The notes under the pieces are model-generated. The model had not been told where the DNA came from and searched no databases. It worked only from the letters and a program-made list of their open reading frames with translations. DNA of 64,000 bases. It comes from a virus. Each line of letters starts with the position of its first letter. Position 1 is the first letter of the stretch. Where the stretch lies: IMG/VR virus record IMGVR_UViG_3300024336_000009, positions 1-64,000 of that record. The stretch is one strand, 5' to 3'. Positions 39,887 to 64,000 of this stretch are shown one piece after another. Both the position numbers and the translations under genes were made by a program.

Positions 39887-39887
39887 A

Positions 39888-46904: not shown

Positions 46905-46922
46905 GGGGGACCGAAGTCCCCC
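46905..46922 (-). terminator. Terminator after the SSB gene
   Basis: Minus strand GGGGGAC-TTCG-GTCCCCC then TTAATTT. A seven-pair GC stem with a UUCG tetraloop lies between the SSB stop (46937) and the uvsX start, so it likely ends most transcription of the abundant SSB message. The following T run is short, so some read-through to uvsX is expected. Confidence 0.8.
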
Positions 46923-46936
46923 TATTATTATTTATC

Positions 46937-47698: not shown

Positions 47699-47860
47699 TA
47701 TTTTTCTCCTAATTTTTCAATGCTTATTTGTTAATGTTTTACTTGTTACTATTTAATTATTCATTAAATAAAACCCTTTTCACATTAATATATAGTAAGC
47801 ATGCGGAGAAAAACGCCGCTTTATTTCGCTATTTTTTAAAATAATCTTATGAAGTTTTTA

Positions 47861-48043
47861 TTATCTCAGATTCAAATTCCCCTCAATATCTACCACTAAA
47901 AATTGTGCATTGGTTTGAATTTCCACTTCAAGCTTGACCGATTCTCCGGATTCAATGCGTTCCATTACTTGAGTATGGAGTGGAGCATTTTGATATATCA
48001 AATGATAATCATTTACATTTTTTGGAGTTAATACGACTTCCAT
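47861..48043 (-). CDS. Small hypothetical protein (60 residues)
   Basis: MEVVLTPKNVNDYHLIYQN, then SGESVKLEVEIQTNAQFL and DIEGNLNLR. It is followed by 160 bases of AT-rich non-coding DNA before the SSB gene. Not recognised. Confidence 0.5.
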   Translation of the reverse strand: MEVVLTPKNVNDYHLIYQNAPLHTQVMERIESGESVKLEVEIQTNAQFLVVDIEGNLNLR

Positions 48044-48153
48044 TATCCATTTTCCCTTGTATTATCGTTGGGATATGATGGCAATGTTTCAATCAATTTC
48101 ATAAATCCCAATGCTACTGTTATTGACGCCAAAGCGCCCGATAGTAATACCAT
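48043..48153 (-). CDS. Tiny membrane-type peptide (36 residues)
   Basis: MVLLSGALASITVALGFMKL is a single hydrophobic segment, followed by a short polar tail ending NTRENG and TAA. Start 48151-48153 lies two bases after the previous gene and the TAA overlaps the next ATG. Small membrane peptides of this kind are common in phages but hard to prove. Confidence 0.4.
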   Translation of the reverse strand: MVLLSGALASITVALGFMKLIETLPSYPNDNTRENG

Positions 48154-48154
48154 C

Positions 48155-48325
48155 TTAAATTTCCTCTACTCCCGATTCAAGTGCCCAGTTATAGAGACCT
48201 TCATCGTTCATAATCCACAATCTACGTTCGTCATCATCCAAATCGAAATTTGGTTGGTCGATAGCCGTTCGAATCATTAAATCCAATTCGGCTCTGTTGT
48301 CGTCAATAAATTCTTGTAATGTCAT
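48155..48325 (-). CDS. Small acidic hypothetical protein (56 residues)
   Basis: MTLQEFIDDNRAELDLMIRT, DLDDDERRLWIMNDEGLYNW and ESGVEEI. Very acidic, helical. ATG 48323-48325 follows the next gene with a short spacer. Small acidic proteins of this type often act as anti-host inhibitors, but there is no direct evidence. Confidence 0.5.
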   Translation of the reverse strand: MTLQEFIDDNRAELDLMIRTAIDQPNFDLDDDERRLWIMNDEGLYNWALESGVEEI

Positions 48326-48326
48326 T

Positions 48327-48542
48327 TTAATTTTCCTCTTGTTCCATTTCTTCTATTAATACTGGAATAGTTTGGTCGTATGGATTTCCACCATTTGCCC
48401 AGTTATCCAAGTGTGCCACTAAATACGCATCGACTGACATTTGATTATCAGTACCCGATACGGCTTCTTCGATTAATTCGATAGCCTCATTAATTTTCAT
48501 TTGAGCGTTTTCTAGCAATTCAATCTGATCACTTTTTGTCAT
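48327..48542 (-). CDS. Small hypothetical protein (71 residues)
   Basis: MTKSDQIELLENAQMKINEA, ELIEEAVSGTDNQMSVDAYL and LIEEMEQEEN. Helical, acidic, part of the short early gene run behind the promoter at 48849. Not recognised. Confidence 0.5.
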   Translation of the reverse strand: MTKSDQIELLENAQMKINEAIELIEEAVSGTDNQMSVDAYLVAHLDNWANGGNPYDQTIPVLIEEMEQEEN

Positions 48543-48546
48543 TATA

Positions 48547-48822
48547 TTATCCTTTATAATTCTTAGCTATTAATGAACCGTCCCACGCCTTTTCAGCAGG
48601 GAAATCATATTTGTTAAATCCAGAGAAGTAACCAAAGGTGTTACCACCTAAAGCGACCACTGCTTTGTTTAGAAAATCAATGTACTGAAAAGCAATACTC
48701 TTGCTCATTCGTACACCCTTTAACCGAGTGATTTCCTCACCAACTTTAACGAAAAAACCCTCTTCGTCTTTCATTAGTTCGTACTCAGTTTCATACCAAA
48801 ATATTCCAGTTATTTTTCTCAT
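48547..48822 (-). CDS. Small early protein
   Basis: 91 residues from ATG 48820-48822, preceded by GAGAGGACAATCAA; an earlier in-frame start lies too close to the promoter. MRKITGIFWYETEYELMKDEE then EITRLKGVRMSKSIAFQYIDFL and NTFGYFSGFNKYDFPAEKAW. First gene of the transcript from the promoter at 48849. Not recognised. Confidence 0.55.
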   Translation of the reverse strand: MRKITGIFWYETEYELMKDEEGFFVKVGEEITRLKGVRMSKSIAFQYIDFLNKAVVALGGNTFGYFSGFNKYDFPAEKAWDGSLIAKNYKG

Positions 48823-48848
48823 TTGATTGTCCTCTCTTATCATACCTG

Positions 48849-48877
48849 AAGATACAAGAAAAAAATGACAATGTCAA
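48849..48877 (-). promoter_or_regulatory. Early sigma70-type promoter P1
   Basis: Minus strand TTGACA (-35), 17-base spacer TTGTCATTTTTTTCTTG, TATCTT (-10). It is one of four near-identical promoters (49360, 52698, 54259). The -35 is a consensus hexamer and the spacing is ideal. Predicted start about 48842, giving a 20-base leader. Confidence 0.8.
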
Positions 48878-48895
48878 GCGTTATTTTGCTTTTTC

Positions 48896-48923
48896 GCAAA
48901 AAAAAAGCACCATTTCTGATGCT
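48896..48923 (-). terminator. Rho-independent terminator
   Basis: Minus strand AGCATC-AGAAAT-GGTGCT followed by TTTTTTTTT. It lies just after the stop of the gene at 48946 and just before promoter P1, so it separates two early transcripts. Confidence 0.75.
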
Positions 48924-48945
48924 TTCTTCGGTGTACAAGTGTATC

Positions 48946-49314
48946 TTAACGACTCAATGCCATTTTGACATTCTCTGAGCGGAATTTGTAACTCCGCCCA
49001 TTAACCACATTTTCAGCGATGATGGGCATCTTACGATTCCGAGTTTTCAAACCAGTGATACGGAATGTCTTGCCGTTTGACATGAATTCACGACCCAAAT
49101 CGGTTGGTTCCAAACCGTAGTAATGTGCCTCAGATTTAAAATCCAACGCCTCACGGGATTCCACACCGACCTCGCGGAACTCAAATTTGGGAGCGAATGA
49201 AAGTGAATCAAACTTCCCACCCTTATTCTCTACTTCCAAACCGTTCTTTGCAGCAAATTCTGCCAATACGGTTTCTAATTCTGTTCCTAATACACGTGCG
49301 CGTCTTCTATCCAT
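48946..49314 (-). CDS. Early hypothetical protein
   Basis: 122 residues from ATG 49312-49314 with GGAG upstream: MDRRRARVLGTELETVLAEF, DSLSFAPKFEFREVG, FMSNGKTFRITGLKTRNRK and GRSYKFRSENVKMAL. Basic, beta-rich second half. Not recognised. Lies between promoter P2 and a terminator, a single-gene transcript. Confidence 0.6.
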   Translation of the reverse strand: MDRRRARVLGTELETVLAEFAAKNGLEVENKGGKFDSLSFAPKFEFREVGVESREALDFKSEAHYYGLEPTDLGREFMSNGKTFRITGLKTRNRKMPIIAENVVNGRSYKFRSENVKMALSR

Positions 49315-49359
49315 TTTTTTCTCCAATTGTGTTTTGTTTTGACTTTCTTATCATACCTG

Positions 49360-49388
49360 AAGATACAAGATAAAAATGACAAAGTCAA
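49360..49388 (-). promoter_or_regulatory. Early sigma70-type promoter P2
   Basis: Minus strand TTGACT, 17-base spacer TTGTCATTTTTATCTTG, TATCTT. The surrounding 55 bases match P3 at 52698 almost completely. Confidence 0.8.
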
Positions 49389-49417
49389 GCGTTTTCTGCT
49401 ATTATTTTAATTTATTT

Positions 49418-49771
49418 TTAAACACTTTCCAAAAATTTGGCTGTTACATCAACCACATTTTCCCGTAGAGCGTCATTAAATATAATCTGATGTTCCATTT
49501 CGATGGTTTCTTCACAATCAAATTCAATCATTATAAATCCATTGTCAACCATTTCTTGAACGTCCCGTTTAGAAAACCAATAAGACATATCAGCCATGCT
49601 ACCAACTGCAGTTTTCCAAATCTTACCGTCTGTCCTATGAATATCATCATGGGGCATGGGCATTTCGGCCAGTCTCCTATCGGTTAGTTTTTCAAGTACT
49701 AACTCACCATCAAATTTAACTGTCCACATTCCATCAGTTGTTGCTTTGTGCTCGATTCTGTAAAGCTTCAT
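49418..49771 (-). CDS. Early hypothetical protein
   Basis: 117 residues: MKLYRIEHKATTDGMWTVKF, TDGKIWKTAVGSMADMSYWF, and a C-terminal EHQIIFNDALRENVVDVTAK. The layout suggests a small ADP-ribosylation or binding fold but I do not recognise it. Confidence 0.5.
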   Translation of the reverse strand: MKLYRIEHKATTDGMWTVKFDGELVLEKLTDRRLAEMPMPHDDIHRTDGKIWKTAVGSMADMSYWFSKRDVQEMVDNGFIMIEFDCEETIEMEHQIIFNDALRENVVDVTAKFLESV

Positions 49772-49786
49772 AACTTTCTCCTTTAT

Positions 49787-50746
49787 TTAAAAATCACCCT
49801 CGGCCACTTGAAAACATGGTATTCCGACCACTTCTCTCCAGTGTTCAACCATTTGATCACGGTCATCCAATACGAATAACACGTTGTATTTGCCCTTGAT
49901 TTCAGCCTCATATAATTCATCTTTAATGATTGAATCTCGGCGTATATCATCTGGTGCTCTCATGAATAGGTTGTCCCCGTATGTTACTGGGAACCAAGTC
50001 TTATCAGCGAACCATCGGATTGTTTCATCGCGAGCGTGTCCATCACGGCCTGATAAGAATATGATTTTAACCATATCCTCTTCAGGAATACAATGTTCCA
50101 TATCAGTCCAATTGCAATGTTGGATGAATTTCAACAACTCATGTACTGGTTCATTTACATCATCCTTATATACAGCAGACCAATCGAATGGTCCCCTGTT
50201 GGTCATCTTTGCAATAGTACCATCAATGTCAACCAAGATACATTTTTGTAATGACTCATCCTGTTTGATATAGAACGACCCATTTGTGCTTGGTGGATAA
50301 TAGCTCTTAGGAACTATGTTTAAATTCTTGTTGATGAATTTCGTGAAGAATTTTTTAACCACACCCTCTGGAACTTGATCAATTACAGGACGGCCAGCAT
50401 TTCTCTTCAAAGCGGTCTTTAAATCTACATCGATATATTTTTCAATTACTTCAACATCACCGACTTTTTCGGCAATTTTGTGCCATTGTTTACGCACTTT
50501 CCCCTTTAAGTTGGTATCATCTGAAATAACATTCAGACCCTTTTTCAATGCCTTTTTGGCCATATCGAATGCAGTCTTAGCTACAACCATTTCTAGTTCA
50601 TCCGAATATGCTCCGCCGTTCATCATCATTCTGAGATCGTCGCGGTTAATCCTAACCCAATTTGATGGGTCTTTACGCACTATTTCTTTGGCGATAGTGG
50701 ACTTGCCAGCCCCTGGTACTGCCACCATTATAATTAATTTATTCAT
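49787..50746 (-). CDS. pseT: Polynucleotide kinase 3'-phosphatase (T4 PseT-like)
   Basis: 319 residues with two enzymes: an N-terminal 5'-kinase (VAVPGAGKSTIA, P-loop 11-17; RINRDDLR as the acceptor site) and a C-terminal HAD phosphatase (LVDIDGTIAKM, DxD at 173/175; FLSGRDGHARDETI). It heals broken RNA ends, typically cleaved tRNA, before ligation. It works with the RNA ligase at 52740. Confidence 0.95.
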   Translation of the reverse strand: MNKLIIMVAVPGAGKSTIAKEIVRKDPSNWVRINRDDLRMMMNGGAYSDELEMVVAKTAFDMAKKALKKGLNVISDDTNLKGKVRKQWHKIAEKVGDVEVIEKYIDVDLKTALKRNAGRPVIDQVPEGVVKKFFTKFINKNLNIVPKSYYPPSTNGSFYIKQDESLQKCILVDIDGTIAKMTNRGPFDWSAVYKDDVNEPVHELLKFIQHCNWTDMEHCIPEEDMVKIIFLSGRDGHARDETIRWFADKTWFPVTYGDNLFMRAPDDIRRDSIIKDELYEAEIKGKYNVLFVLDDRDQMVEHWREVVGIPCFQVAEGDF

Positions 50747-50979
50747 TATCTAAATCCTCTAGTTTCCGTTGGATATTGCGCGCTTCGAACGCTGTCCAAT
50801 TCTTTTCGTAAATATTTGATACAATTGGCCAAATCTCCGTGTTGTTCTTTTGTCGCTTCCCAATCACTAGGGAAGTGACCCATGTCATCCAATTTAATCA
50901 GTTGTTTAATACGCCGTAATTCCTGACCGCATAATTCACAACATACCGATTCGTCATATTCGTATGTTTGATTAGTCAT
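50746..50979 (-). CDS. Small hypothetical protein (77 residues)
   Basis: MTNQTYEYDESVCCELCGQEL has a CELCGQ knuckle with CC before it, followed by IKYLRKELDSVRS. A single zinc knuckle is possible. Unknown function; overlaps the PNK start. Confidence 0.5.
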   Translation of the reverse strand: MTNQTYEYDESVCCELCGQELRRIKQLIKLDDMGHFPSDWEATKEQHGDLANCIKYLRKELDSVRSAQYPTETRGFR

Positions 50980-50981
50980 TT

Positions 50982-51182
50982 TTAATATCCCGATTCGTTG
51001 TCTTCAATGATTTCATCGATGTTATCCTCGGTGACTTCATCGGAATGCATCTCGTATATGTCAATGTCCACATTTTCCCCACGGATTTCAATCAATGGTT
51101 GTAAACTTGTCCCGTCGGGAGACGCCATAGCATCCCTTACCGTAATGGTTCCATAATATTCAGTTTCAATTGTCTTGGTCAT
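50982..51182 (-). CDS. Small acidic hypothetical protein (66 residues)
   Basis: MTKTIETEYYGTITVRDAMA, SLQPLIEIRGENVDIDIYE and DEVTEDNIDEIIEDNESGY. Beta-rich start and strongly acidic tail. Not recognised. Confidence 0.5.
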   Translation of the reverse strand: MTKTIETEYYGTITVRDAMASPDGTSLQPLIEIRGENVDIDIYEMHSDEVTEDNIDEIIEDNESGY

Positions 51183-51184
51183 TT

Positions 51185-51706
51185 TTAATCTTCCTCATAT
51201 CCATATAGTTCATCGAGATGTGCCCACATATCTGCAAAGAGTACCCCACGCTTTAGAGCGTATCTGAATGTTGGGTATTCCTTAGTGTATGCTTTAAACA
51301 TGCGATGCCCGTTCCTCTTTGACCGGCGGGTGTTTGCAATCCTGTCCGATAATTTTAGAAACGTGGCTCCGTGGCTTTCTCTTGTTTTGGGGTAAGTTTT
51401 CATTCCCCGTTCAATTCTGTTTTTTCCCAATTCGTTGGTAACTCTATATACCAAATCAGCAACTACCGTTCCAACCACCTTTTCCAAATCTCCATAGCTG
51501 GTATCTGTATCTTCCAATACGTCATGGTTCCATGCCGCTGAAATCAGTTGTTCGTAGTTTTCGGAGAATCCCCGAATTAGATGCTTAAATTCTTCAACCA
51601 CGTTTACCACTTCGCTCAAGTGGGTTTCATATGGTTTTCCATCATAGGTTTGATTTGCTATGCTGTGTCTATGTACTGCGTACGATTTTGCTTTCTCAAT
51701 CATCAT
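51185..51706 (-). CDS. SpoT/MESH1-like HD-domain hydrolase
   Basis: 173 residues. YDGKPYETHLSEVV supplies the first His, AAWNHDVLEDTDTSYGDL the HD and ED motifs (61-62, 65-66), and TFLKLSDRIANTR the distal KxSDRxxN motif (118-125). The set defines (p)ppGpp-hydrolase-type HD proteins. In a phage it could erase the host stringent signal or degrade defence nucleotides; this is inference. No synthetase domain. Confidence 0.8.
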   Translation of the reverse strand: MMIEKAKSYAVHRHSIANQTYDGKPYETHLSEVVNVVEEFKHLIRGFSENYEQLISAAWNHDVLEDTDTSYGDLEKVVGTVVADLVYRVTNELGKNRIERGMKTYPKTRESHGATFLKLSDRIANTRRSKRNGHRMFKAYTKEYPTFRYALKRGVLFADMWAHLDELYGYEED

Positions 51707-52415
51707 CTTCCTCCAAATAGTCGGTCATGTGTTCGTTTTCAAACATAACTTTTTCTAAAAATTCTGCCAGTTCCTTGATGTGATGGGCCTTAAATTCAAA
51801 TTTGTCCCATTCTCTAATCATTCCAGAGCCTGAATCGATTGAATACTGACCATCGGGCTGAGCTGATAATGTCAATAAAGGTAATGGAACCGTTGTTGTC
51901 TCTTGCCCATAATAGGAACGTTTTTCCATTTCACGGGTTTTACTAGCTATATCAATAGTTCTAGTCCCACGAGTTGTGACATTAAAATTTCCATCATCGA
52001 ATTCTGAAATTGCGTTGTATTTGAAATCTTCAACTTTGTTTTTCTCATCGATTAATTGCCGAATATGTTGCTCATATTGTTTCATCGCGTCGTTGGCCAA
52101 TGTGAATATTTTCTTAAATTTACCCAATTTCTTTTCACGACGATCTCTGTGGTACAGAAAAGAAGCGTATCCCGGTTCATATACAAATCTACCTGGAGAC
52201 ACATTTGAATAAATTTCAGTATGGGTAATCGAAATTCTGAATTCGTTTTCGTTTTCAATTTTACCAGAAGTGTTTTTACCCCAAATTCTGATATATTGGT
52301 CTCTTACCCGTTCAATTTCAATCGAAATATACGGACTTTTCTTAAACAATTGAACCAAATTTAGGTTCAAAAATGCTTCTAATTTATCAAATTCTTGTTT
52401 GGTTACTATAGCCAT
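51669..52415 (-). CDS. Early hypothetical protein, ends by TGA read-through or TGA
   Basis: The frame reads ...DYLEEDDD then TGA (51696-51698); read as Trp it continues WESKIVRST to TAG 51669-51671, overlapping the HD gene by 38 bases. If TGA is a stop the gene ends at 51696. Body: MAIVTKQEFDKLEAFLNLNL, ISIEIERVRDQYIRIWGKN, and a C-terminal PHHIKELAEFLEKV-like helix (AHHIKELAEFLEKVMF). Function unknown. It is one of two places where TGA could still act as a stop. Confidence 0.55.
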
Positions 52416-52416
52416 T

Positions 52417-52671
52417 TTATATACTAATTCCTTTAAATGTGGGGAATGCCCGTTTTAATACCAATTTATCCCAATCACTAAATTTTACTTCGGGTATTAA
52501 AACCTTAGGCTTTAATTCCGATGTCATTGGGTTGTGATTCATACCACTTAAAAATATAGTTGCACCCACGGGATATTCAACAAAATCACCCATTTCGGCG
52601 AGACGCAAAAAATCACTCCTAAAAATATCAGTTAATAGTCGTAATTCATTTTTCGTAATATTTGTAAACAT
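52417..52671 (-). CDS. Small early protein
   Basis: 84 residues from ATG 52669-52671 with GAGAGGAAATACCA upstream: MFTNITKNELRLLTDIFRSD, EMGDFVEYPVGATIFLSGMN and a C-terminal VLKRAFPTFKGISI. The longer in-frame start sits within the promoter. Not recognised. Confidence 0.5.
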   Translation of the reverse strand: MFTNITKNELRLLTDIFRSDFLRLAEMGDFVEYPVGATIFLSGMNHNPMTSELKPKVLIPEVKFSDWDKLVLKRAFPTFKGISI

Positions 52672-52697
52672 TGGTATTTCCTCTCTTATCATACCTG

Positions 52698-52726
52698 AAG
52701 ATACAAGATAAAAATGACAAAGTCAA
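52698..52726 (-). promoter_or_regulatory. Early sigma70-type promoter P3
   Basis: Minus strand TTGACT, 17-base spacer TTGTCATTTTTATCTTG, TATCTT, same as P2. The upstream edge follows the stop of the RNA ligase gene (52740). Confidence 0.8.
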
Positions 52727-52739
52727 GCGTTTTCTGCTA

Positions 52740-53684
52740 TTATTTTAATTTATTTACCATTTTTTCATTCCATTTGGACATCCAATGATCATCAGTTGCC
52801 CCGACATGACCAGCACGGACACATTTTCCAACCGAATCAGCGAAGTCGTCATAGTGAAATCTGTCAGCCAGACGAACTACATAACCTTCAACCTCATCAC
52901 CATCCAACCCATTTATCATCAAATCGTCTCCAATTTCACGAATTATCGATTCGTCATATATTCCTTCATATATTGTAGCGACCGGTGTTAATCCCAAATC
53001 TTCAATATAATGAAGTGTAGATTTCCATGATAAACAAATATTGTCAGCTTGCCATATTGAAAATGCTTGGAAATAACTGTCCAGATATTTATATTTGATA
53101 GCGTGTTCTGCATATAAATTTTCACCACACACGCGCCACCCTGCAGGGAGACGGTGCCTGATAGAACCATGGATTCCCTTTACATAATTGCGACTATTGT
53201 GATGTCTACTATCCAATGATCGAGCATGGAAATGGTCGTTGTACATTGTCGTATTCTCACCATCCATTTTCACAGTTACAACAACTTCTTTGCCAATAAA
53301 TTGATCAGGATTTTCCATCATCTTGTCATCATTCTGAAGTCCTTCCGACCAAGGAAAATGATACGTTCGTGGGTACTTGAAATATTTTTGTGTTTTACCC
53401 CACTTGTCATAATCCAATCTTGGATCGTATGTCCCATCGGGGAGAATCACTTCTTCAATGCCAATAATTTCCCTCAGATCGGCTGGAGTAATATCACCAT
53501 TTTCCGCTTCCAAGTGATGTTTGGAGCACAATGAGGCCCCATTGTCCAAGTAGTACCCACCATCTTTAAACAGTTTCCTGTCCATTATATGATGTGCATC
53601 GACCGCCTCTTCACCACATATTACGCATAGTGAAATATCACGTTCAAATACCTGCATCCCAAATTCTTTTCTAGTTAGTAACAT
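52740..53684 (-). CDS. HNH-RNA ligase fusion protein
   Basis: 314 residues. The N-terminus is an HNH/zinc-knuckle module (CVICGEEAVDAHHIMDRKLF, then CSKHH, about 20-57). From about 110 an RNA ligase follows: TVKMDGENTTMY with the adenylated Lys139, HARSLDSRHH, RVCGENLYAEHA, and VEGYVVRLADRF (about 265-276, motif IV). The order fits Rnl2-type ligases. It seals RNA ends healed by the PNK at 49787. I use ATG 53682-53684; the earlier start overlaps the neighbour. Confidence 0.85.
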   Translation of the reverse strand: MLLTRKEFGMQVFERDISLCVICGEEAVDAHHIMDRKLFKDGGYYLDNGASLCSKHHLEAENGDITPADLREIIGIEEVILPDGTYDPRLDYDKWGKTQKYFKYPRTYHFPWSEGLQNDDKMMENPDQFIGKEVVVTVKMDGENTTMYNDHFHARSLDSRHHNSRNYVKGIHGSIRHRLPAGWRVCGENLYAEHAIKYKYLDSYFQAFSIWQADNICLSWKSTLHYIEDLGLTPVATIYEGIYDESIIREIGDDLMINGLDGDEVEGYVVRLADRFHYDDFADSVGKCVRAGHVGATDDHWMSKWNEKMVNKLK

Positions 53685-53880
53685 TATGTAACCTCTTATA
53701 ATCCTCGTCCTCAAATATGATTTTACCATCACGTTCCACACGGACAATATCAAATTTTATGTTTTTCTTAGACGTGAAGTCTTCATTATGTGTGCCCCAA
53801 ATGCTTCCAGCATAAGTTAGATACACCCTGTTATTTCTGAATGTCAATGAATCGTATGGTTGTAAATCTTTTAATTTCAT
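53671..53880 (-). CDS. Small hypothetical protein (69 residues)
   Basis: MKLKDLQPYDSLTFRNNRVY, LTYAGSIWGTHNEDFTSKKN and FEDEDYKRLHNVTN to TAG. Beta-rich, perhaps an SH3-like barrel, but not recognised. Overlaps the ligase start by 14 bases. Confidence 0.5.
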   Translation of the reverse strand: MKLKDLQPYDSLTFRNNRVYLTYAGSIWGTHNEDFTSKKNIKFDIVRVERDGKIIFEDEDYKRLHNVTN

Positions 53881-54236
53881 TTTTTTACCCTTATTTCTAT
53901 CTCATATAAATAATCCCAATGGCCACTTGGTTGATATTTTATGACCTTTGGATGATATTTTAATTTGTGCAATGTATCTTCAATCCCGAAGATTGTATCC
54001 ATCGCCTGTTTTACACTATCTTTGCGAGTACCCATATTTCCACGAAATGATACCGAAATATTCACAGCCTTTCGTGATCTTCGGATTTCCACCGATCCCA
54101 ATCCAGAATGATATGTTCCATTATCAGCCTGTCTGGCCACCTCTGCAACATCTGTTAAATTATCTGAATTTATTACATCCGATATTGTCCCATCCATATC
54201 TTCTGGTAGTTCAAATAGTGTGTGTTCGTCAGTCAT
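53871..54236 (-). CDS. Early hypothetical protein, possible TGA read-through at its end
   Basis: 121 residues with TGA=Trp: MTDEHTLFELPEDMDGTISD, KAVNISVSFRGNMGTRKD, DTIFGIEDTLHKLKYH, then VKK-W-N and TAA 53871-53873. With TGA as stop it ends at 53877 and overlaps the next ATG (ATGA). First gene behind promoter P4. Unknown function. Confidence 0.55.
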
Positions 54237-54258
54237 TTTGTCCTCTTTTCCTTAGATG

Positions 54259-54287
54259 AAGATACAAGATTATCCGCACAAAGTCAA
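54259..54287 (-). promoter_or_regulatory. Early sigma70-type promoter P4
   Basis: Minus strand TTGACT, 17-base spacer TTGTGCGGATAATCTTG, TATCTT. Same hexamers as P1-P3 but a more divergent spacer. It follows directly after the terminator at 54308. Confidence 0.8.
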
Positions 54288-54307
54288 GCTTTATTTTGCA
54301 ATGCCGC

Positions 54308-54329
54308 AAAAAAAACCCCCAATCGGGGG
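54308..54329 (-). terminator. Rho-independent terminator
   Basis: Minus strand CCCCC-GATT-GGGGG followed by TTTTTTTT. Strong hairpin with U tract after the stop of the gene at 54335; it separates the late block from early promoter P4. Confidence 0.88.
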
Positions 54330-54334
54330 CAGTT

Positions 54335-54751
54335 TTAGTTTTCTTTAGATTCTCATTCGGTTACATTAATGATTGTATATATCCGGGTGGGTATTTTAAC
54401 AAACCCAGAGGAGTTCGTAAGCAATAAATTATTTCTGAATTCGTCTCAATCTATTGGAAATGTCTTATCCAGTACCCCATTGTTCTTACGCCTAATCACT
54501 TCATTAAGAGCGTTAATGGTATATAGTGTATTGGATTGTTTTTTTCTATGCAAGGAAATGGTATCCTTATTTGTAAGGTAATTTTCAGTATCCTGTTCTA
54601 TATTGTATGTGCATATCAACTGGTGGAAATTGTCTTCATTTTGAAACACGTATATTTTATTGAATAGTATTTCATGGTAATCAATGATTAAATCTATCGT
54701 ATCGTGCAACTGATTCCGTTTTGTGAATGAGCAAAGTAATTGCGTGTGCAT
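54335..54751 (-). CDS. Conserved phage protein of unknown function, two TGA=Trp codons
   Basis: 138 residues joined through TGA 54446 (PID-W-DEFRNN) and TGA 54353 (TE-W-ESKEN). MHTQLLCSFTKRNQLHDTID, KIYVFQNEDNFHQLICTYNI and RKKQSNTLYTINALNEVIRR; the last stretch is one I recall as conserved in large phage genomes. Function unknown. The standard code ends it 37 residues early. Confidence 0.65.
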
Positions 54752-54777
54752 ATTGCATTTCCTTTCGTAGCGGGGGA

Positions 54778-56673
54778 TTATTTATTTCCGATTTCCACCA
54801 ATTTCTGTTTAAGTTCCGATATCTTTTCTTTAATATATGGAGCATTAGCTGGTGCCGCGTCTTTTAATTCTTCTTTATATTCAGCAATGGATTTTTTTAG
54901 AAAATTCTTTTCTTGAAGTGGTGGCCACTGATCAATATCCATACCATATTGTAGAGCGTTAGCCATAAATGTGGTTTGCACTATTTCCATTGTAGGTGAA
55001 GCTCCTATACCCCTTGATCTGGCCGACATTTTGAATAATGGATATTCAGTTCCATCTTCGTGTTTTATTTTTATAGACCCATCCCTTGAACCGTCTTTAT
55101 AATCAATTACCAATTTCGATTCAATTTCATCCATTAACATTTTTTTATATTTATCTTTTTCATTATCTGGAGCATCTCTGAATTTTTCGAGTATATTTTT
55201 GGATTTGTTACCAAATATCGTCATCAATGTCTTTTCACTCAATTTCGACCCATCTGGTGGAATACCATAAACAGTAATAAACTTATCCAAACTCTTATTG
55301 GGAGTAATGCCCAATGTTTCATCAATATGAATTCCATGCAAAATATGTTTTTTAAATCCATCTTCAATCTGTGGATTGTCCTTAACGGATTCCAAAAATC
55401 TAGATAGAAGTCTAGCATCAGCATTTCTCATATTATTATATACTTCCGGATTGGTTTCTCTAAAAGATGAAGATTGTGCAATCTTAGCAAACGTCCTAAC
55501 ATCAAGTCCATTCATTTTCCCAGATTTCCCAGAAATTCTATTTACAAATTCCGAGTCGATCCGTTTTCTATATTTTTCAAAATTTGGGCCCAATGTGTCT
55601 CGGGCATATTTGTCGTCTTTTAATAATTTTTTCAAAATTTCATTTGAATTTGCACTTTCCGCAAATGCACTGGCACCTTCATTAACCTGTTTTTTCAAAT
55701 CGGCAACATATGACTTTTTACCAGCCTTTTTCTTAAATTCTTCAAGATCGGATTTGCTCACCCCACCTTTGGTTAATTCTACCGATATTGTGTCAAATAC
55801 TTTTCCATATCCACCATTGCTCAGAAATACCTGTCCGCTCTTTTTAAGGCTTATCCCAACTCTAGTTCCATCTTTTAATTTAACAAACATATCCGAAGAA
55901 GTCCCATGACCAGTAGTATTTATAGCGGAATTTCCTTCTGGAGTATCCCACATAATTTCATCTATATTATCCATTCCAAACATGCTTTCAATAGATTTGC
56001 CAGACGCGATAGCTGCCGTTACCCATTCTTTAGTTAAAACGGATTCCTTTTTATTAGCAATATCCATTAATTCAGATTCGATTTCATCCATGGATTTTCC
56101 ACTCTTAAGCAATCTCAATGTTTTGTGAACCGCGGCTTCTCCTGCTCTCGATTCCGCTGTTCCGGCACCGACACCCTTTATTCCCGTTTGTTTCGCCTGA
56201 GCTTTAGCACCTTCTTTTGTCATCATTAGAGCGGAGTCGGTTTTTTGATGATCAGTACTAGTCAATTCTTCATGCTTTTTATCAGTGCCTTGATCCCCAT
56301 TGTCCCGACTATCAGATTTTGGCTCATCTTTTCCTCCAGATTCACCATCAGATTTTGCCGGTTCTCCAGTTTTAGGATCACCCTTGTAATAATGGCCACC
56401 CTTTGGTCCAGTTTCGATTTCCGCTCCGGCCGGTGCATCCTTATCATTCTGAACATACACCTTCCCTATTTTTTCATTCAATGTTTTTACATTTTTCAAA
56501 TTTGTAATAAATTCATTGATCGTGGGTATATCCCAATCCCATTCGGTTAATATATCCCTAAGTGCCATTTGATGACCAAAATCATTGGGATTTGGCATTC
56601 CATCGTGGACTCTGTAGCCCCACTCTATTAATAGTGCGTCCAAATATTCATCGGTGTTAAAGTCAAAACTCAT
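54778..56673 (-). CDS. Large phage protein with possible PD-(D/E)XK-like domain
   Basis: 631 residues from ATG 56671-56673 (GGAG seven bases upstream). N-terminal helical segment, then VYVQNDKDAPAGAEIETGPKGGHYY-type linker (about 72-96) seen in phage head/portal-associated proteins, followed by a charged Ser/Glu/Lys region. The middle VKLKDGTRVGISLKKSGQVFLSN suggests a D-x(n)-(S)xK nuclease-like site (about 264-286), but the Glu is replaced. Several helix repeats follow. Not assigned to a family. Confidence 0.45.
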   Translation of the reverse strand: MSFDFNTDEYLDALLIEWGYRVHDGMPNPNDFGHQMALRDILTEWDWDIPTINEFITNLKNVKTLNEKIGKVYVQNDKDAPAGAEIETGPKGGHYYKGDPKTGEPAKSDGESGGKDEPKSDSRDNGDQGTDKKHEELTSTDHQKTDSALMMTKEGAKAQAKQTGIKGVGAGTAESRAGEAAVHKTLRLLKSGKSMDEIESELMDIANKKESVLTKEWVTAAIASGKSIESMFGMDNIDEIMWDTPEGNSAINTTGHGTSSDMFVKLKDGTRVGISLKKSGQVFLSNGGYGKVFDTISVELTKGGVSKSDLEEFKKKAGKKSYVADLKKQVNEGASAFAESANSNEILKKLLKDDKYARDTLGPNFEKYRKRIDSEFVNRISGKSGKMNGLDVRTFAKIAQSSSFRETNPEVYNNMRNADARLLSRFLESVKDNPQIEDGFKKHILHGIHIDETLGITPNKSLDKFITVYGIPPDGSKLSEKTLMTIFGNKSKNILEKFRDAPDNEKDKYKKMLMDEIESKLVIDYKDGSRDGSIKIKHEDGTEYPLFKMSARSRGIGASPTMEIVQTTFMANALQYGMDIDQWPPLQEKNFLKKSIAEYKEELKDAAPANAPYIKEKISELKQKLVEIGNK

Positions 56674-56686
56674 TTTTTTCTCCATT

Positions 56687-56704
56687 CTTTATATATAAAT
56701 ATTA
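56687..56704 (-). promoter_or_regulatory. Candidate late-type promoter element
   Basis: Minus strand TAATATTTATATATAAAG then AATGGAG and the start at 56673. It closely resembles 31055 and 34977 (TATATATAAAG). Confidence 0.45.
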
Positions 56705-57991
56705 CACAAAATAATTATCGATACTTTTCATATCATAATAATTTACGCCCATATCTACAGTTACCAATTTGCCTTGGCTTTCCATAATTCTCTTAATTCC
56801 AATCAGTAATTCCTTACCGTCAGTTCCGTTAAAATCGAATAGTAACGAATCATAAGTGTAAAGTATAAGCTTAGTTTCTGATCTATCCAATATAATTTTA
56901 ATTTGATTCAAGTATTCATGTACATCTTCGAACTCCAGTAATTGTAACATATAATTAAACAATTTTTGTGGATTCATATTTTTTAAATTTGATTTGTATA
57001 TGGTTTTCCCACTTATGGGAGACACTACGCTATGCATTTTATACTTATTCCACAACTTCTGTATATACATATTAACTTGTGCAAAAAAGTCGATTTTTTC
57101 AAATTCCCTATCAATTCCCCCATATAATAATTGAAACGTGATCCCTTTGCCCTCTTTATATTGCTCTGGGGTTAGCTTGTCAGTATCAAAATAAATTTTT
57201 CCAAGGTAATCGTGGGGAGATTCTGTAAATTTGAATCCTATTAAATCAGCAATGATATACAAGTGATTACCGCTGAAATCATATTCAATCAAGTATCCAT
57301 CCTTGCCAAATCTACTGATATATTTTTTTCTAGTCTCATCCGATTTATTCAATGCCGCGTAATTAGTACCACCATACGCATTTGAAGGTCTCCCCGTACT
57401 AGTGTACATATTGTAATTCGTATATGCCATGCCGTCTAATGTCCGCAATCCCGCCGATTCTATGTATTCCATATTGTCCATATACTGATTATTATATAAA
57501 TCATTTGGTGGTATGAATGTCCATATTCCCAACTCGCCAGCCAAATTTCTGCAATATTCCAAGTGCTTCATTATAGGGATGACCGAGTTCAAATTCGATT
57601 TTCTATAATGCCTAACGTGAAAAAACTGGTGTGCTGGAGTCGTGATATTATCGATCAACAGCGGCTTGTTGTTCATCTGATAGTGGAGCATATTAACATC
57701 GATTACATTGTCAAATTTGTATATATGATTCATTTCCTTTTTATCGTACACATATTTTTTCTGACCAGTCTCTAATTTGGCCAGAGCGTCATATGGAAGA
57801 TTCAATGATTCTGTATGATCGAATGCCAAAATAGCGTCGGTATCACTTTCTATGGGTTTGACGTATAGGACACATAATTTGTTCTGTAATGGGTGTACTT
57901 TGGTGTCGGACATAATGGGCACTACAATCCACTCATGGGAACCCCATAGTGCCATAAAATCATCCAATTGTGATATTGTTTCAATAACCAT
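56702..57991 (-). CDS. Family A DNA polymerase-like protein with altered motif A
   Basis: 429 residues. TSTGRPSNAYGGTNYAAL matches the T-x-TGR-x-S entry to the Pol I palm. Motif A is LIEYDFSGNHLYIIADL (Asp238), where Pol I has DYSQIELR; motif B is KEGKGITFQLLYGG with K and YG; motif C is LYTYDSLLFDF (Asp381), where Pol I has HDE. An N-terminal domain of ~180 residues replaces the exonuclease. The missing Glu residues make normal polymerase activity uncertain. No TGA. Confidence 0.7.
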   Translation of the reverse strand: MVIETISQLDDFMALWGSHEWIVVPIMSDTKVHPLQNKLCVLYVKPIESDTDAILAFDHTESLNLPYDALAKLETGQKKYVYDKKEMNHIYKFDNVIDVNMLHYQMNNKPLLIDNITTPAHQFFHVRHYRKSNLNSVIPIMKHLEYCRNLAGELGIWTFIPPNDLYNNQYMDNMEYIESAGLRTLDGMAYTNYNMYTSTGRPSNAYGGTNYAALNKSDETRKKYISRFGKDGYLIEYDFSGNHLYIIADLIGFKFTESPHDYLGKIYFDTDKLTPEQYKEGKGITFQLLYGGIDREFEKIDFFAQVNMYIQKLWNKYKMHSVVSPISGKTIYKSNLKNMNPQKLFNYMLQLLEFEDVHEYLNQIKIILDRSETKLILYTYDSLLFDFNGTDGKELLIGIKRIMESQGKLVTVDMGVNYYDMKSIDNYFV

Positions 57992-58000
57992 TTATACAAC

Positions 58001-58017
58001 CTTTATTATAAGTATCA
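58001..58017 (-). promoter_or_regulatory. Candidate late-type promoter element (exact repeat of 5259-5275)
   Basis: Minus strand TGATACTTATAATAAAG, followed by GTTGTATAAATGG and the start of the polymerase-like gene at 57991. Exact 17-base identity with the element in front of the HNH gene 53 kb away. Confidence 0.45.
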
Positions 58018-58027
58018 GCGTATATGT

Positions 58028-58615
58028 TTAAAACCCCAGTTTTTTTTCGATTGCTTCCTTTTTTGTTGGGACATCCTGCCAGTATTCTGTGAAGCTAATT
58101 GATATGAATGTCTCTGGAAATATGTCTCTCAGCAAGTCCAATGCTTTTATATTTGATTCTACCACATCATTCAATTTTCCAGATATGACCCAGCGTATTT
58201 GACCTTTTGTATAATATGGTAATGGATTTCCAAATTGGGATTTATTGATCTCGATTAGTGGAGAATGATTGTCGTTTAATCGTTGAACAAAATACCTGTC
58301 CAAATATCCATTTTTGATATCTTTTTTCTTCACTTCCACGGCGTATGGTGTTACAAACCAGGTGGATGCTATATTGCCATTTCTGGACTTTTTATATTTG
58401 GCGAAATCGGTACTACCCTTTTTTAGTGTAATTATTTCTGGAACAATTGTGTCCGTAATATAATATTCAATTTTATCCTTTGTGTAATATATAGAATATG
58501 GCAAGTCGGCTCTAACCCAGTTACCATTGTCATAGGTAAATTCATTTATCCCAGTGATACGACCAGTCAATTTACGATCCATTTTATCTCTTATATTTTT
58601 AATTTTTTTTATCAT
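58028..58615 (-). CDS. Hypothetical late protein
   Basis: 195 residues: basic N-terminus MIKKIKNIRDKMDRKLTG, then YSIYYTKDKIEYYITD, KNGYLDRYFVQRLNDNHSP and a C-terminal FPETFISISFTEYWQDVP. Possibly virion-associated by position. An alternative start is Met12. Not recognised. Confidence 0.5.
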   Translation of the reverse strand: MIKKIKNIRDKMDRKLTGRITGINEFTYDNGNWVRADLPYSIYYTKDKIEYYITDTIVPEIITLKKGSTDFAKYKKSRNGNIASTWFVTPYAVEVKKKDIKNGYLDRYFVQRLNDNHSPLIEINKSQFGNPLPYYTKGQIRWVISGKLNDVVESNIKALDLLRDIFPETFISISFTEYWQDVPTKKEAIEKKLGF

Positions 58616-58618: not shown

Positions 58619-61066
58619 TTATAATGCATCCGGAATAATATAACCCAATCGTCTCATTAATTCAGCTTTCGTTTCCGAGTTCTCAGTCCTTTCAATTTGT
58701 TCTTCATTTTCGGCCTTTTCATCTTTTAGGAAATTTCGGTCGGATTTTTCCGTGTCAAGTTGATCCCTTACGGATATTCTCATTTTTCCCACAATGGAAG
58801 TTTTTCAGCTGGACGCGTCCAGCTCTTGTGTAGAACTCATAACCTGAAATAATACCCGATCTTTATATTGGGAAGGCAGATAATTGCTTGTAAAACAATT
58901 TCCTGGGAAAATCCCAGATATACCATCCAATGTTAATGAGATTTCCAACGCGACCATGGGATCAAAATCAATAGAAACCGATTCTTTTTCATCGTATGTA
59001 ATTAAATATTTCATGACATCCAATCATGGAGTGTCCTTGGTATTTAATAAATTCCCCCAATATCCATAAACACTGCCAGTCAATGTGTCTTTATCTTCCG
59101 ATTTGAAATTAAAATCAAAAAATTGTTTTTCGGTAAATTTCAACGTATGTATGCTTTTGACAGTTTCGGCGGTTTCATCATCGTGATTTTCTGAATCTGA
59201 CCCTTTTTTATCAATGGCCTCAATACCAACATCGGGACCACTTTCCGTATCAAATTTGGAATTTACCCCAGCGGATTTATTACCAAATTTATCAAAATTT
59301 CAACCGGGTTTAATATCATGAATCAGCCCGTCTTTATCACCAGGAGCACTACCCAATTTACTAGCAGCGACAATTTTAATGCCTCCCATTTGGGAAGGTG
59401 ACGTAATTTCCTCAGCATTATCCCACATCATCGCCATAGCCATTTCATTTGTAATTTTAGCATTTAATGATTGTGCAGTAACAATACTATCCTTACCCAT
59501 AACTGGGAAATGGAATAAACCACCAGTAACAGTTTCTCAATATTTATCCAATTCACTCGGAATTTTAAGCAACGATTTTACAGATTGTTTGGTAAGATTC
59601 ATGTCTACAATCTTTAATGTACCGGGTCTATCTGGTGCAGATACCAATTGCAAATCTCATATTCCAACATTTTCATTCATTCTCTCAAACAATTTTTTAA
59701 GTGCACTGGTGATATCAGACGCGTCATTGAATACATTTGTTATCAAATAATTCCAATTGAACATTATATTTCGCATGTATCCTATCTTTAAATTTTTATA
59801 TTCAGCTGGATCATCAGTTACTTGGAACGTTGGGAAATCCTTATTAAAATCCCGCAATATCGGATGAACATCAGTAAGATCATCCACATTTCTATGCGAT
59901 TGTCCAGGTAAAATAAAAAATTTATAATCTGGAGAAATCAATTTATCATGACTTGATATTTTAGTTGATTGTCATGCCAGCTGATCTGGGGGCAATCCTT
60001 CAGTTTCAGCCAATCCAGCCGTTTCGATTGTGTGTTGATCCCCGTTGTCTTTTAATATAGGTTCTATACTTCGAATTGAACTTATTACTACACCGTGAGC
60101 GTCCACTTTGCTTAAATATTTATTTAATATATTATCTTCTATTCATCCCCATGATATATATAATTCATGTGATCTCGGATCGGCACCGGTAGATGGTTCA
60201 AATCTATTCTTAATTCATTGTAATGGCATTCCTTCATTGCCAATTCCACCATCATCCACATGTTTAAATTTTTCAAGTTTGGTTGAAATGTCCCTTAGAA
60301 ATGTTTGGAAATTTTGTTTAAGTTCAACTTTTCGGTTATCATTTTTATCCGTTTTTGCGACATTTATATTGTCCACTGGAGTAATTCGTTGTTTTAATAT
60401 GTCTAATCCCATTGAAGAAATATTGGTAGTGCAATCGATTCCCCCATCGTCTCTAGTCGATCATTCAAAATTGGTTACGAGACCAATCATACCATCATAA
60501 GTTCCATTGGAATTAAATGAATTTTCCATCATTTTTTTATGTGCCAATATCATATCTGGGCTTTTTTCATTTATATCATGTAATACCATATCATTGTCCG
60601 AATATGAATATCCCCATTCTAAAATAACAGTTCTACCCGGTTTTAAAAAATATGGAGTATATTTGGTAACATCGTCAAATGACCAACAAGTCCAATTAAT
60701 AGTAGCAGTACGCAATGTCGCCAATGTATTTTTATATTCAACACTAATACTTTTTACTCCAGGCATTGGTCTGTACTGATTATCACCAGTATTTCTAGGA
60801 GAATTATACATATCCTCAAAACCATAATATGCTTCTTGATTTTCTTTTAACAATCCCCCACCTATTATTACAGGTTTATCATCTTTGATAAGCCCAACCA
60901 TCCGGATTCAAGTCGATTTTGCAAAAATGTTATTTGCGTCGGCTTTCTTTTTCCCAGTACCATCGGTCTGCGGACCTTCAAATAGTATGCCTTCTCTATT
61001 TAACAACTTTTGTCGTCTGTGCAATTCCGCCCTAATTTTACTATGTATGGGTTGTAGATTAATCAT
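58619..61066 (-). CDS. Baseplate/tail-type virion protein, ten TGA=Trp codons
   Basis: One frame of 815 residues from ATG 61064-61066 to TAA 58619, held together by TGA at 60908, 60461, 60215, 60143, 59972, 59657, 59537, 59300, 59024 and 58805. The N-terminal half has NWTCWSFDDVTKYTPYFL and GRTVILEWGYSYSD, a pattern I associate with myovirus baseplate hub-type proteins. The C-terminal third is charged and helical (EKAENEEQIERTENSETK). It contains 7 TGG and 10 TGA. Standard calling leaves five or more short ORFs. Exact baseplate role unknown. Confidence 0.85.
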
Positions 61067-61068: not shown

Positions 61069-61371
61069 TTAAAACCCCCTATTTAATTCTTCCAAATCAC
61101 TAAATATTTGTGCAGTGTCGGTGGGTATTCTGATATCCAGTCCAGATTTTAATGTAAAATTTGCATCATCTATATCATTGGCAAGTGCTATTATCCACCA
61201 CAACGATGTGTCTCCATAATATTTAAATGCAAGCAAATCTAGCCTGTCACCTTTTTTGGACATTGTGAAAATATCAGAATCCAATATTGGAATCTTGGGA
61301 TACAATGTAGTCTTAAATACACGGTTTTTTAAAGAATTTCTTTTTATATTGGTGTGTGTATATCTACCCAT
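61069..61371 (-). CDS. LysM-type baseplate protein (gp53-like)
   Basis: 100 residues. FTMSKKGDRLDLLAFKYYGDTSLWWIIALANDI (about 36-68) is a LysM-like module with the YYGD...WW.IA.AN pattern of T4 gp53-type baseplate wedge proteins. Its position between two tail proteins supports this. No TGA. Confidence 0.75.
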   Translation of the reverse strand: MGRYTHTNIKRNSLKNRVFKTTLYPKIPILDSDIFTMSKKGDRLDLLAFKYYGDTSLWWIIALANDIDDANFTLKSGLDIRIPTDTAQIFSDLEELNRGF

Positions 61372-61374: not shown

Positions 61375-64000
61375 TTAATCCTCCCACGATGGATCAGACC
61401 ATGAAAATGGTCCATCGCCCTTTCCAGATTGCCCCATTTCCGCGAACAATTCCCTTAAATCCATCCCATCGGAATGCCTATCGGGATAATTGCCATTTGG
61501 ATTATCCAAATATGCAGTGGAACTTTTATTATTGTTATTTTTATAATCCAGCCAATCCAAATCATAATGCTTACCCTTTTGAGCCGGCTTGTGTTTTCCA
61601 ATGTATTTATACCCAACACTAACACTTAAATGCTTGGGCAATTTGAAATGATCATCCAATTCCCAAGTGGTGTTATCTTCTACCGTTATTGATAAGCTGG
61701 TTAAAAATCCTGGAGCCCCCGTTCACATATTACCAATGGTCAATTCGGCAAATGGAGATACCATTCGTTCCATATCACTATTGGAAAAATCTTTTCAGCT
61801 GGGGTAACACATTCCAATTAAATAATTCATTTTTTCTCATAAAATTGGCAGTTCCTGTTTCGTCTTTGGATATACATTGAAATTGAAACTTATTTCCCTG
61901 TCCACTCCAGCGTATGTATATACTTTATCGGGGCGGCCTATGTATTTTTCTTCTGATCAATCTGGTGTAACACTATCCGATATCCCAGACAGAATGGCTC
62001 TGAAAATGATTCATTTATTATTGACCACATCTTTAAATTTAAATGGAATGAAATCTCGTACTTCTAAATTGTTAATTTCCTTTGGCTCTTTTCCATTAAC
62101 ACTCCCGTATGGTAGGGCATTAACTTTGTCAACCTTACTTGTCATAAGCTTACTCGATCCCAAATCGGCCTTAATATGACTAAAACCAGCCTTTTTCAAA
62201 CCGGCATTAAATGTCTCGGGCCTAAAGAAAAATCCATCTCCGGTTGTTTCAGACCCATCTGTAAATTGTCTAAGAATTCCAGCATTACTTTGATCTCCAA
62301 CATCAATTACAGCAAATTTTTCATCATCACCAAATTGATCTTTTCGAATTCTATCTATCTCTCTACTTGCTTCCGCATTATTGCCCAGTAGACTTCCCAG
62401 TTTTGATAATAACGGATTTGTTCCCGGATTATCTATAATTGCTTCTTCTTTTCTGAAATGATAATTCAATGAATTTTCACCCCAATCAACAAGTTTTGTA
62501 TCTAAAGGATTGGCCGCTTCGAATTCCAAAACGGTAGATGATACAAGTGGTGATCCAGTATTCCAATGTCGGTTGATATGAACTGTAGGCGTTATAGAAC
62601 CCAATGACAATGGATTCCATGTTCTAGTTTCTTCCTTAGTATTAAGGGTCTGCAATGCCACTTGTTTTATTCCAAATAGAACACCTTTAGTCGAAAGTAT
62701 AAATTTGCCGATTCTGAATACATCGGCAATAGTTCTTGATATGGATGTAATTAATCCACCACGTACTATGCCCTCATCAAAAGCGCCTGTATTACCCAAT
62801 CCATATTTATCTCCTATATCATGAAGGTAAAATGGTTGGTTAAATCCTATATCATTATGTCCATCTCCAATTCTATAATTGAGTTCATCACCGTCTTTAA
62901 ATCCACGGCCGTAATAATTATCCAAATTTGTAGCATCATCATTTCCCCACGAATCTTTATGCAAATCTTTTAAGCGTGATTGATCACCACGTGTGTTATT
63001 TGTTATTGAGCTGCCCTCTCCAATTTTGGCCACGGAAGGAGAATAAGCCTCCCCCCTATAAAAACCAGTATTCAGAAATTTTGGTGAATTTTCATTCTGT
63101 TTGCCCAATTGAAAATTTCTAGTATATGGTTCCATTGTCAATGTGGTACTGGTATCAAAATATTGAATTCTAGATCGTCGTTTGTATGTTTTTGTATATG
63201 ACTTGCCTATACTGAATGTTTTAAACCACGAATCCGTAGGACTTGGAGTATCTTCTTTTGTAGGTAAAGCGATATTGGAATTCAATGACGACAATGCTTC
63301 ATATGCATGCCCAAATATATCCGTAAATGTCATGTTTATTGCATCGCCGGTTTTAAATCTACTGTCTTTAATTGGTCCAAATAAGCTGGCAAATTGTAAT
63401 GTTGATGTAGGTTTAGTAGACGCTTTATTTGGTAGGTATGTTCCAGCCCAATCAATGTTTTCATCCGAATCGGTCAGTATTCTAGTCTGTAATCCATAAT
63501 TACCAACAAAACTATATTGTTTTGGAATATGAAATGTAGGTTGTTTTCCATCCACAAATGATGTATTGATAGCATCTTTAGTTGTGGATCATACTGGAGC
63601 AGTCGCTATTCTAGATAATTGTCTAGCTCTAATAGTAGTTGGATTGTGTGCGGCCAAATTGACATCACCCTCAATCCAATGCAATGAATCTTCAAAATCT
63701 ACCTCTGGATAATGATCAAAAAATGTTCGGTCTGTTTTCTCATATGATATTGGAACACCAGTATCAGCTATGTCTCCTGTCATATATTGAACAGAATCTG
63801 CAAATGGAATCGCCGTGTGATGATTAAATGCCGCTCTAGTTTTAGCGTATGAAATTGGCAATGTTATCGCCGGAGTGTCATAAACAATATCAGGATTAGT
63901 TACCGATGTTTCAATTGGAGGAGCATATCTACTAATATAACTGGCAATTGGAGTAGTCATAAAATCACTCCCATGTGCGCCCAATGTACTGGGTGTCGTA
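61375..64000 (-). CDS. Large tail/baseplate virion protein, six TGA=Trp codons (5' end beyond window)
   Basis: Open frame of at least 875 residues ending at TAA 61375, with in-frame TGA at 63589, 62011, 61957, 61837, 61795 and 61723. The C-terminal region DREISFNFNVYPKTKQELPI-LW-EKMNYLIGMCYPSW (about 1.1-1.3 kb from the end of the visible part) matches a pattern of phage tail proteins (beta-sheet, then LxxLWxKLNxLxGxxYP). The frame is open through base 64000, so the start is not visible. Eleven TGG and six TGA encode Trp here. Confidence 0.8.

What the first reader, a model, noticed from the sequence alone, without database searches (positions are those of the whole stretch)
58619..61066. One 815-residue baseplate-type gene broken by ten TGA codons
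Five short ORFs in one phase (mod 3), each ending at TGA and beginning with alternative starts, merge into a single continuous protein between TAA and the ATG at 61066. This makes the region look like a set of small unknowns under the standard code.
Basis: seen in the sequence. Interest (0 to 1): 0.7.

Follow-up and report, generated by a model that had tools for sequence, protein, structure and literature searches.

The report
Phage tail gene reading UGA as tryptophan
A tail-tip gene of an uncultured contractile-tailed phage is a single 815-residue protein only if ten UGA "stop" codons are read as tryptophan, and this reading is shared by a small clade of related phages that keep UGA out of nearly all their DNA-replication genes, so the phage appears to add a second meaning to a stop codon mainly for particle-building genes.

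Summary
Window 58619-61066 (-) is one open frame of 815 codons with ten in-frame TGA and no TAA or TAG. Four contigs (window virus, G001, G002, G003) carry it identically. In 17 standard-code homologues the ten TGA sites hold Trp in 85 of 158 aligned cells and an aromatic residue in 125; two sites (470, 754) are Trp in all 17. TGA therefore means tryptophan here. The gene sits in the same tail order as in Flavobacterium phage immuto. Weak fold matches and hydrolase fusions in two relatives suggest a baseplate hub. The recoding is not genome-wide: 21 TGA to 47 TGG in ten tail genes, 1 to 133 in 36 replication-region genes. A few genes still seem to end at TGA. All recoded relatives form one clade (100/100 support), inside standard-code phages. 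No UCA suppressor tRNA, TrpRS or RF1 was found in about 84 kb of this virus or in a 140-kb recoded relative. How UGA is decoded stays open: an unrecovered suppressor, or near-cognate tRNA-Trp reading (TGA is followed by A in 57%, against 38% in controls). It is a new lineage of a known phenomenon.

The parts
58619..61066 (-). 815-aa baseplate hub-type protein, ten in-frame TGA read as Trp (codons 53,202,284,308,365,470,510,589,681,754)
   Evidence: synteny; fold
61069..61371 (-). gp25-like baseplate wedge subunit, no TGA
   Evidence: PHROG 7145 2.5e-14
61375..64000 (-). baseplate-module protein, 1084 aa in full (61375-64629, runs past the window end), six in-frame TGA
   Evidence: no PHROG or Pfam hit; orthologue G006:53018-55891 with two TGA
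58028..58615 (-). 195-aa gene downstream in the module, no TGA here, one near-terminal TGA in relative G006
45762..46886 (-). RecA, TGA at codon 39; the first alternative start (codon 92) would remove the Walker A region
   Evidence: TGA39 also in the 83%-identical relatives, Trp (TGG) or Phe in others
16101..17069 (-). GDP-mannose 4,6-dehydratase, TGA at codon 156, the conserved W of GHWITxNYRES
836..1675 (-). NAD-dependent epimerase, TGA at codon 27 (TGG in G006)
12662..14113 (-). sugar epimerase + glycosyltransferase 2 protein, three TGA (236, 344, 469)
18300..18983 (-). FkbM methyltransferase, one TGA
8237..8956 (-). rhamnan-synthesis-like (RgpF) protein, one TGA
20084..21088 (-). unknown gene of the sugar cluster, one TGA
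2912..3706 (-). phrog_5104 gene (HNH-associated), four TGA
4589..5248 (-). phrog_5104 / NUMOD3 gene, two TGA
26714..27568 (-). phrog_5104 gene, three TGA
27651..58615 (-). replication/nucleotide-metabolism block: 36 genes, 133 TGG, 1 in-frame TGA (the RecA one), three genes that end in TGA
39038..39110 (-). tRNA-Gly (UCC), not a UGA suppressor
39122..39193 (-). tRNA-Gly(UCC)-like gene with a 6-nt anticodon loop, not a UGA suppressor

Best explanation
58619-61066 encodes one 815-residue baseplate protein, most likely hub-type, of a contractile-tailed phage in which in-frame UGA is decoded efficiently as tryptophan. (Shown by sequence: the open frame, the Trp identity, the conservation across viruses, the restriction to certain gene classes.) UGA as Trp is confined mainly to tail, baseplate, terminase/portal and surface-sugar genes and is avoided in replication genes, so the likely logic is a late-phase switch: early in infection UGA still stops, and full-length tail proteins are made only once a UGA-decoding activity is present. 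(Inferred; no expression data.) The decoder must be efficient, because full-length yield falls as the tenth power of per-codon efficiency. The likeliest source is a Trp-inserting suppressor tRNA in the unrecovered part of the genome, or the normal tRNA-Trp reading UGA as a near-cognate codon when release at UGA is weakened. (Inferred and unresolved.)
For: Trp identity: in 17 standard-code homologues the ten TGA columns hold W 85, F 23, Y 17 of 158 residues, against 0.9% W at non-Trp columns; columns 470 and 754 are W in 17 of 17. TGA156 of the GDP-mannose dehydratase falls on the W shared with 1rpn and 2z1m. Of the window-virus TGA sites that align in G006, most carry TGG or TGA. Not decay: no TAA or TAG in the frame, identical in four contigs, and TGA39 of RecA and TGA133 of the sheath recur in contigs from several datasets. 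Gene-class bias: tail genes 21 TGA / 47 TGG, replication region 1 / 133, Fisher p = 1.8e-10; sugar cluster 17 / 157. G006: terminase 3 TGA and portal 5, major capsid protein 0. One recoded clade: 100/100 support in the trees of this protein and of the sheath. Baseplate role: gp25-like neighbour, immuto synteny, top PDB fold matches mostly baseplate, hub or spike chains, Amidase_2 in one homologue and a carboxypeptidase annotation on the immuto homologue.
Against: No UCA-anticodon tRNA, RF1 or TrpRS was found in about 84 kb of this virus or in the 140-kb relative G006. Late expression is assumed from gene function. RecA, usually not a late gene, also carries a conserved TGA. The hub assignment rests on a model of mean pLDDT 66 and on PDB matches with E no better than 0.027.
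Confidence: 0.8

Rival explanations
1. The host itself reads UGA as Trp throughout (code 4), and the phage simply follows its host's code.
For: No phage decoder was found. Cook et al. 2024 (PMC11210395) note that many table-4 phages infect table-4 hosts.
Against: Replication-region genes have 1 TGA against 133 TGG while tail genes have 21 against 47; a code-4 host would let TGA drift into all genes alike. TGA still appears to end some genes, e.g. 70064-71164, whose TGA overlaps the ATG of 69849-70067. Sister clades and cultured immuto have intact genes under the standard code.
Confidence: 0.13
2. Decoding is done by the ordinary tRNA-Trp(CCA), as a near-cognate reader (for example a 4-bp anticodon-stem variant or weakened RF2), with no cognate suppressor tRNA at all.
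For: No UCA tRNA in the recovered genomes. TGA is followed by A in 41 of 72 sites, against 38% for other A-ending codons, p = 0.0012; UGA followed by A is especially prone to misreading by tRNA-Trp in E. coli (PMC5289835). 4-bp-stem tRNA-Trp(CCA) reads UGA in E. coli (PMC13092985).
Against: Ten UGA in one gene demand high efficiency. The +4A bias is modest, some of the 72 sites are homologous to one another, and a cognate suppressor could share the same preference. The genomes are incomplete.
Confidence: 0.32
3. Pseudogene, assembly error or mutational decay.
For: Ten standard stop codons in one gene.
Against: Only TGA, never TAA or TAG, occurs inside the frame; identical in four contigs; homologous over its full length to intact genes; TGA falls on conserved Trp.
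Confidence: 0.01
4. Another amino acid is inserted, e.g. Gly (as in Gracilibacteria) or Cys/Sec; the phage does carry Gly tRNAs.
For: Both tRNA genes in the window are Gly-type.
Against: Homologues show Trp or another aromatic at most TGA sites, Gly in 4 of 158 cells and Cys in none. The tRNAs carry UCC or ACC anticodons.
Confidence: 0.02

Closest known systems
Code-4 (UGA = Trp) recoded phages, e.g. among Crassvirales and human-gut phages (Borges et al. 2022, not held; as summarised in PMC11210395 and PMC10746230)
   Same: UGA as Trp, with in-frame stop codons said to be concentrated in late structural/lytic genes while the host may use the standard code
   Different: Here the phages are contractile-tailed distant relatives of an aquatic Flavobacterium phage; the recoding is sparse in many genes; no suppressor tRNA, TrpRS or RF1 was found in about 84 kb plus a 140-kb relative
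Flavobacterium phage vB_FspM_immuto_2-6A (Immutovirus, NC_055915)
   Same: Same order of sheath, tube, hub, tape measure, gp25-like gene and this gene; homologous protein, 24.5% identity
   Different: Its homologue is annotated as an intact 938-aa gene under the standard code and named carboxypeptidase; the window protein lacks that C-terminal part
Baseplate hub/spike proteins (gp27-like, VgrG-like; Pseudomonas phage E217 baseplate chain 8eon_E)
   Same: Best PDB fold match and several further contractile-system hub or spike chains
   Different: E = 0.027 only, short aligned part, no sequence-family match

Membership tests
Code-4 recoded phages | In-frame TGA at positions that are Trp in homologues | tested here: met
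Code-4 recoded phages | Recoding concentrated in structural genes and scarce in replication genes | tested here: met
   (21/47 vs 1/133 TGA/TGG); G006 agrees
Code-4 recoded phages | TAA or TAG as main terminators | tested here: met
   67 TAA and 7 TAG against 4 TGA among 78 genes
Code-4 recoded phages | Encodes suppressor tRNA(UCA), with or without TrpRS and RF1 | tested here: inconclusive
   none found, but no record is known to be complete
Code-4 recoded phages | Host uses the standard code | not testable with these tools
   host unknown; the GMD gene gives no host signal
Crassvirales | Short-tailed virion (recalled); a contractile tail sheath should be absent | tested here: not met
   a tail sheath gene is present
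Immutovirus | Tail gene order and homologous proteins | tested here: met
Immutovirus | Genus-level similarity | tested here: not met
   24.5% identity over 59% of this protein; a distant relative only
gp27/VgrG-type baseplate hub | Hub fold | tested here: inconclusive
   mean pLDDT 66, pTM 0.62; best PDB E 0.027
gp27/VgrG-type baseplate hub | Cell-wall hydrolase fused in some members | tested here: met
   Amidase_2 in one of 20 homologues; carboxypeptidase annotation in immuto

The most novel reading that the evidence does not exclude
A clade of phages reads UGA as Trp in late genes without any cognate suppressor tRNA: the ordinary tRNA-Trp becomes an efficient UGA decoder late in infection because the phage, or the infected state, disables UGA release, with a +4A context aiding it.
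Probability: 0.27. Interest if true: 0.8.

Novelty: new member of a known kind. Interest (0 to 1): 0.5.

Why it matters
The recoded viruses form one well-supported clade whose nearest sampled relatives keep the standard code, and the tail gene order is shared with a cultured Flavobacterium phage. This makes the origin of a stop-codon reassignment traceable gene by gene. If no suppressor tRNA exists in the complete genomes, the group would show a route to UGA recoding in phages that does not use a cognate tRNA. In practice, standard gene calling breaks tail, tape-measure, terminase and portal genes of such viruses into 'small unknowns'. On the coding strand the coverage by ORFs of at least 60 aa rises only from 0.90 to 0.96 under code 4, near the 5-10% threshold that one published screen used (PMC10879173).

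Tried and rejected
Uniform code 4 across the genome: rejected by the replication genes. Gly tRNAs as decoders: wrong anticodons, and Trp at the homologous sites. Special selection to keep TGA at particular sites: TGA-to-TGA agreement between the window virus and G006 (9 observed, 4.9 expected within genes, p = 0.008) is no stronger than ordinary synonymous-site agreement (55 against 31.9), so it shows common descent only. Extending the contigs: a pattern scan at the left end of G000 found nothing, and scans at the left end of G003 and at both ends of G006 gave no useful extension. Host by genome contigs: the baseplate alignment found no relative, and the GMD gene is about 60% identical to genes of many unrelated phyla. 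RF1 and TrpRS families: absent. Brute-force cloverleaf scan for UCA or CCA anticodons: none in any contig scanned; the same scan recovers the Gly tRNAs. Sequence profiles for the protein: no Pfam, PHROG or PDB sequence match.

Full report
Observation. Read on the minus strand with TGA as Trp, 58619-61066 is one frame of 815 codons from an ATG to a TAA, with ten TGA. Under table 11 the frame falls into five ORFs of at least 60 aa plus a 57-aa tail piece. Simulated 20-kb sequences of the same dinucleotide make-up never had a frame free of TAA and TAG longer than 279 codons. The gene has 70 TAA in its other two frames and none inside its own. The record is a 71,794-bp linear virus contig. Three other IMG/VR contigs, 99.9% identical to it, carry the gene unchanged, all ten TGA included.

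What TGA encodes. Four homologues were aligned first, then 20. In the 17 rows that use the standard code, the ten TGA columns contain Trp in 85, Phe in 23 and Tyr in 17 of 158 aligned cells; Trp makes up 0.9% of cells at columns that are not Trp in the query. Columns 470 and 754 are Trp in all rows. Independent genes agree. TGA156 of the GDP-mannose dehydratase is the Trp shared with its solved homologues. TGA39 of RecA aligns with TGG or a Phe codon in 70 standard-code relatives. In RecA the first start codon after the TGA lies at codon 92 and would leave out the first 80 or so positions of the RecA domain, so that gene too needs readthrough.

Where TGA is used. In ten tail genes at 58.6-71.7 kb there are 21 TGA and 47 TGG; in 36 genes of the replication block (27.6-58.6 kb) there are 1 and 133; in 32 genes of the sugar-metabolism block (0.8-27.6 kb) there are 17 and 157. 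Tail against replication gives p = 1.8e-10. The replication block contains DNA polymerase, class II ribonucleotide reductase with an intein, DnaB-type helicase, RecA, clamp-loader-like ATPase and RNA repair genes. Most genes end in TAA. A few seem to end in TGA: 70064-71164 has its TGA in a 4-bp overlap with the next start, although in-frame TAA or TAG follows within eight codons in three of the four cases, so TGA termination is likely but not proven. In the 140-kb relative G006, terminase has three TGA, portal five (four of them before the portal match, around an HNH match), sheath one and the major capsid protein none. Particle proteins expected to be made in the largest amounts (capsid, tube) thus carry none, which would fit an imperfect decoder; that last step is inference.

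Evolution. A profile scan found 304 relatives of the protein and kept 80. Only the nearest (L024/L025/L026 at 45%, L028 at 41%, L027 at 39% identity) have in-frame TGA (4, 4, 4, 3 and 6); all others, at 36% and below, have none. In trees of this protein and of the sheath, the recoded rows form one clade with 100/100 support. The sheath TGA133, baseplate-hub-gene TGA137 and RecA TGA39 are at the same codon in the window virus and G006, so the recoding predates their split. Site agreement is no better than at ordinary synonymous sites, so I do not claim that individual TGA are conserved for regulation.

What the protein is. It lies after a gp25-like gene in the order sheath, tube, hub, tape measure, large protein, gp25-like, this gene, as in Flavobacterium phage immuto, where the homologue is annotated carboxypeptidase. 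The extra C-terminal part of the immuto protein is missing here. One of 20 homologues carries an Amidase_2 domain. The predicted structure is of moderate quality (pLDDT 66, pTM 0.62). Its best PDB matches are weak but mostly tail proteins: phage E217 baseplate (E 0.027), VgrS, phiCD508 and PVC baseplates. I therefore call it baseplate hub-type, as a lead and not a membership.

How UGA could be decoded. A gene with ten UGA needs an efficient reader. The window virus (71.8 kb, plus 11.8 kb upstream in G003) and G006 (140 kb) have only Gly-type tRNAs and no RF1 or tRNA-synthetase 1b family member. A brute-force cloverleaf scan that recovers the Gly tRNAs found none with a UCA or CCA anticodon. 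Known code-4 phages can carry a UGA suppressor, TrpRS and RF1 (PMC10746230), but only 15% of table-4 predictions had a suppressor, many of the rest being phages of table-4 hosts (PMC11210395). None of the records here is known to be complete, so a missed suppressor remains likely. The alternative is near-cognate tRNA-Trp. In E. coli, UGA followed by A is especially prone to tRNA-Trp misreading (PMC5289835), and the phage TGA codons are followed by A in 57% against 38% for other A-ending codons (p = 0.0012). A 4-bp-stem tRNA-Trp can also read UGA (PMC13092985). A host that is wholly code 4 is disfavoured by the replication genes, which hold almost no TGA. The host could not be identified.

Verdict. 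The phenomenon is known in other phages. New here are the lineage, the sharply partial use, the single well-supported clade inside standard-code relatives, and the lack of any recognisable decoder so far.

Noticed in passing
window 39122-39193 (-); homologue G006:81817-81889: A tRNA-Gly(UCC)-like gene with a 6-nt anticodon loop (UUUCCA) and two U-U mismatches in the T stem. The relative keeps the loop and T arm while one acceptor pair and one anticodon-stem pair changed on both sides, so it looks maintained; a frameshifting or decoy tRNA is conceivable.
   Followed up: partly
window 39888-42920 (-): Class II ribonucleotide reductase gene interrupted by an HNH intein.
   Followed up: no
window 49787-50746 and 52740-53753 (-): Polynucleotide kinase/phosphatase and RNA ligase, an RNA-repair pair.
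   Followed up: no
window 31404-32171 (-): Mom-family DNA-modification protein.
   Followed up: no
window 37856-39013 (-): DruA-like protein next to the tRNAs, 90% identical in G006.
   Followed up: no
window 2912-3706, 4589-5248, 26714-27568; L017:4497-5384: Four phrog_5104 genes, possibly mobile HNH/NUMOD elements, each with two to four in-frame TGA and no TAA or TAG, so they appear to share the recoding.
   Followed up: partly
window 48820-48890, 49343-49417, 52669-52755, 54257-54323: Repeated stretches of about 60-75 nt between genes (self matches), possibly regulatory.
   Followed up: no
L006:8486-11836 and 11846-15154: The standard-code relative G004 has two tandem paralogues (1116 and 1102 aa) of the baseplate protein.
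   Followed up: partly
G026 and G028 (records of L185 and L230): Distant standard-code relatives with two dozen tRNA genes each.
   Followed up: no
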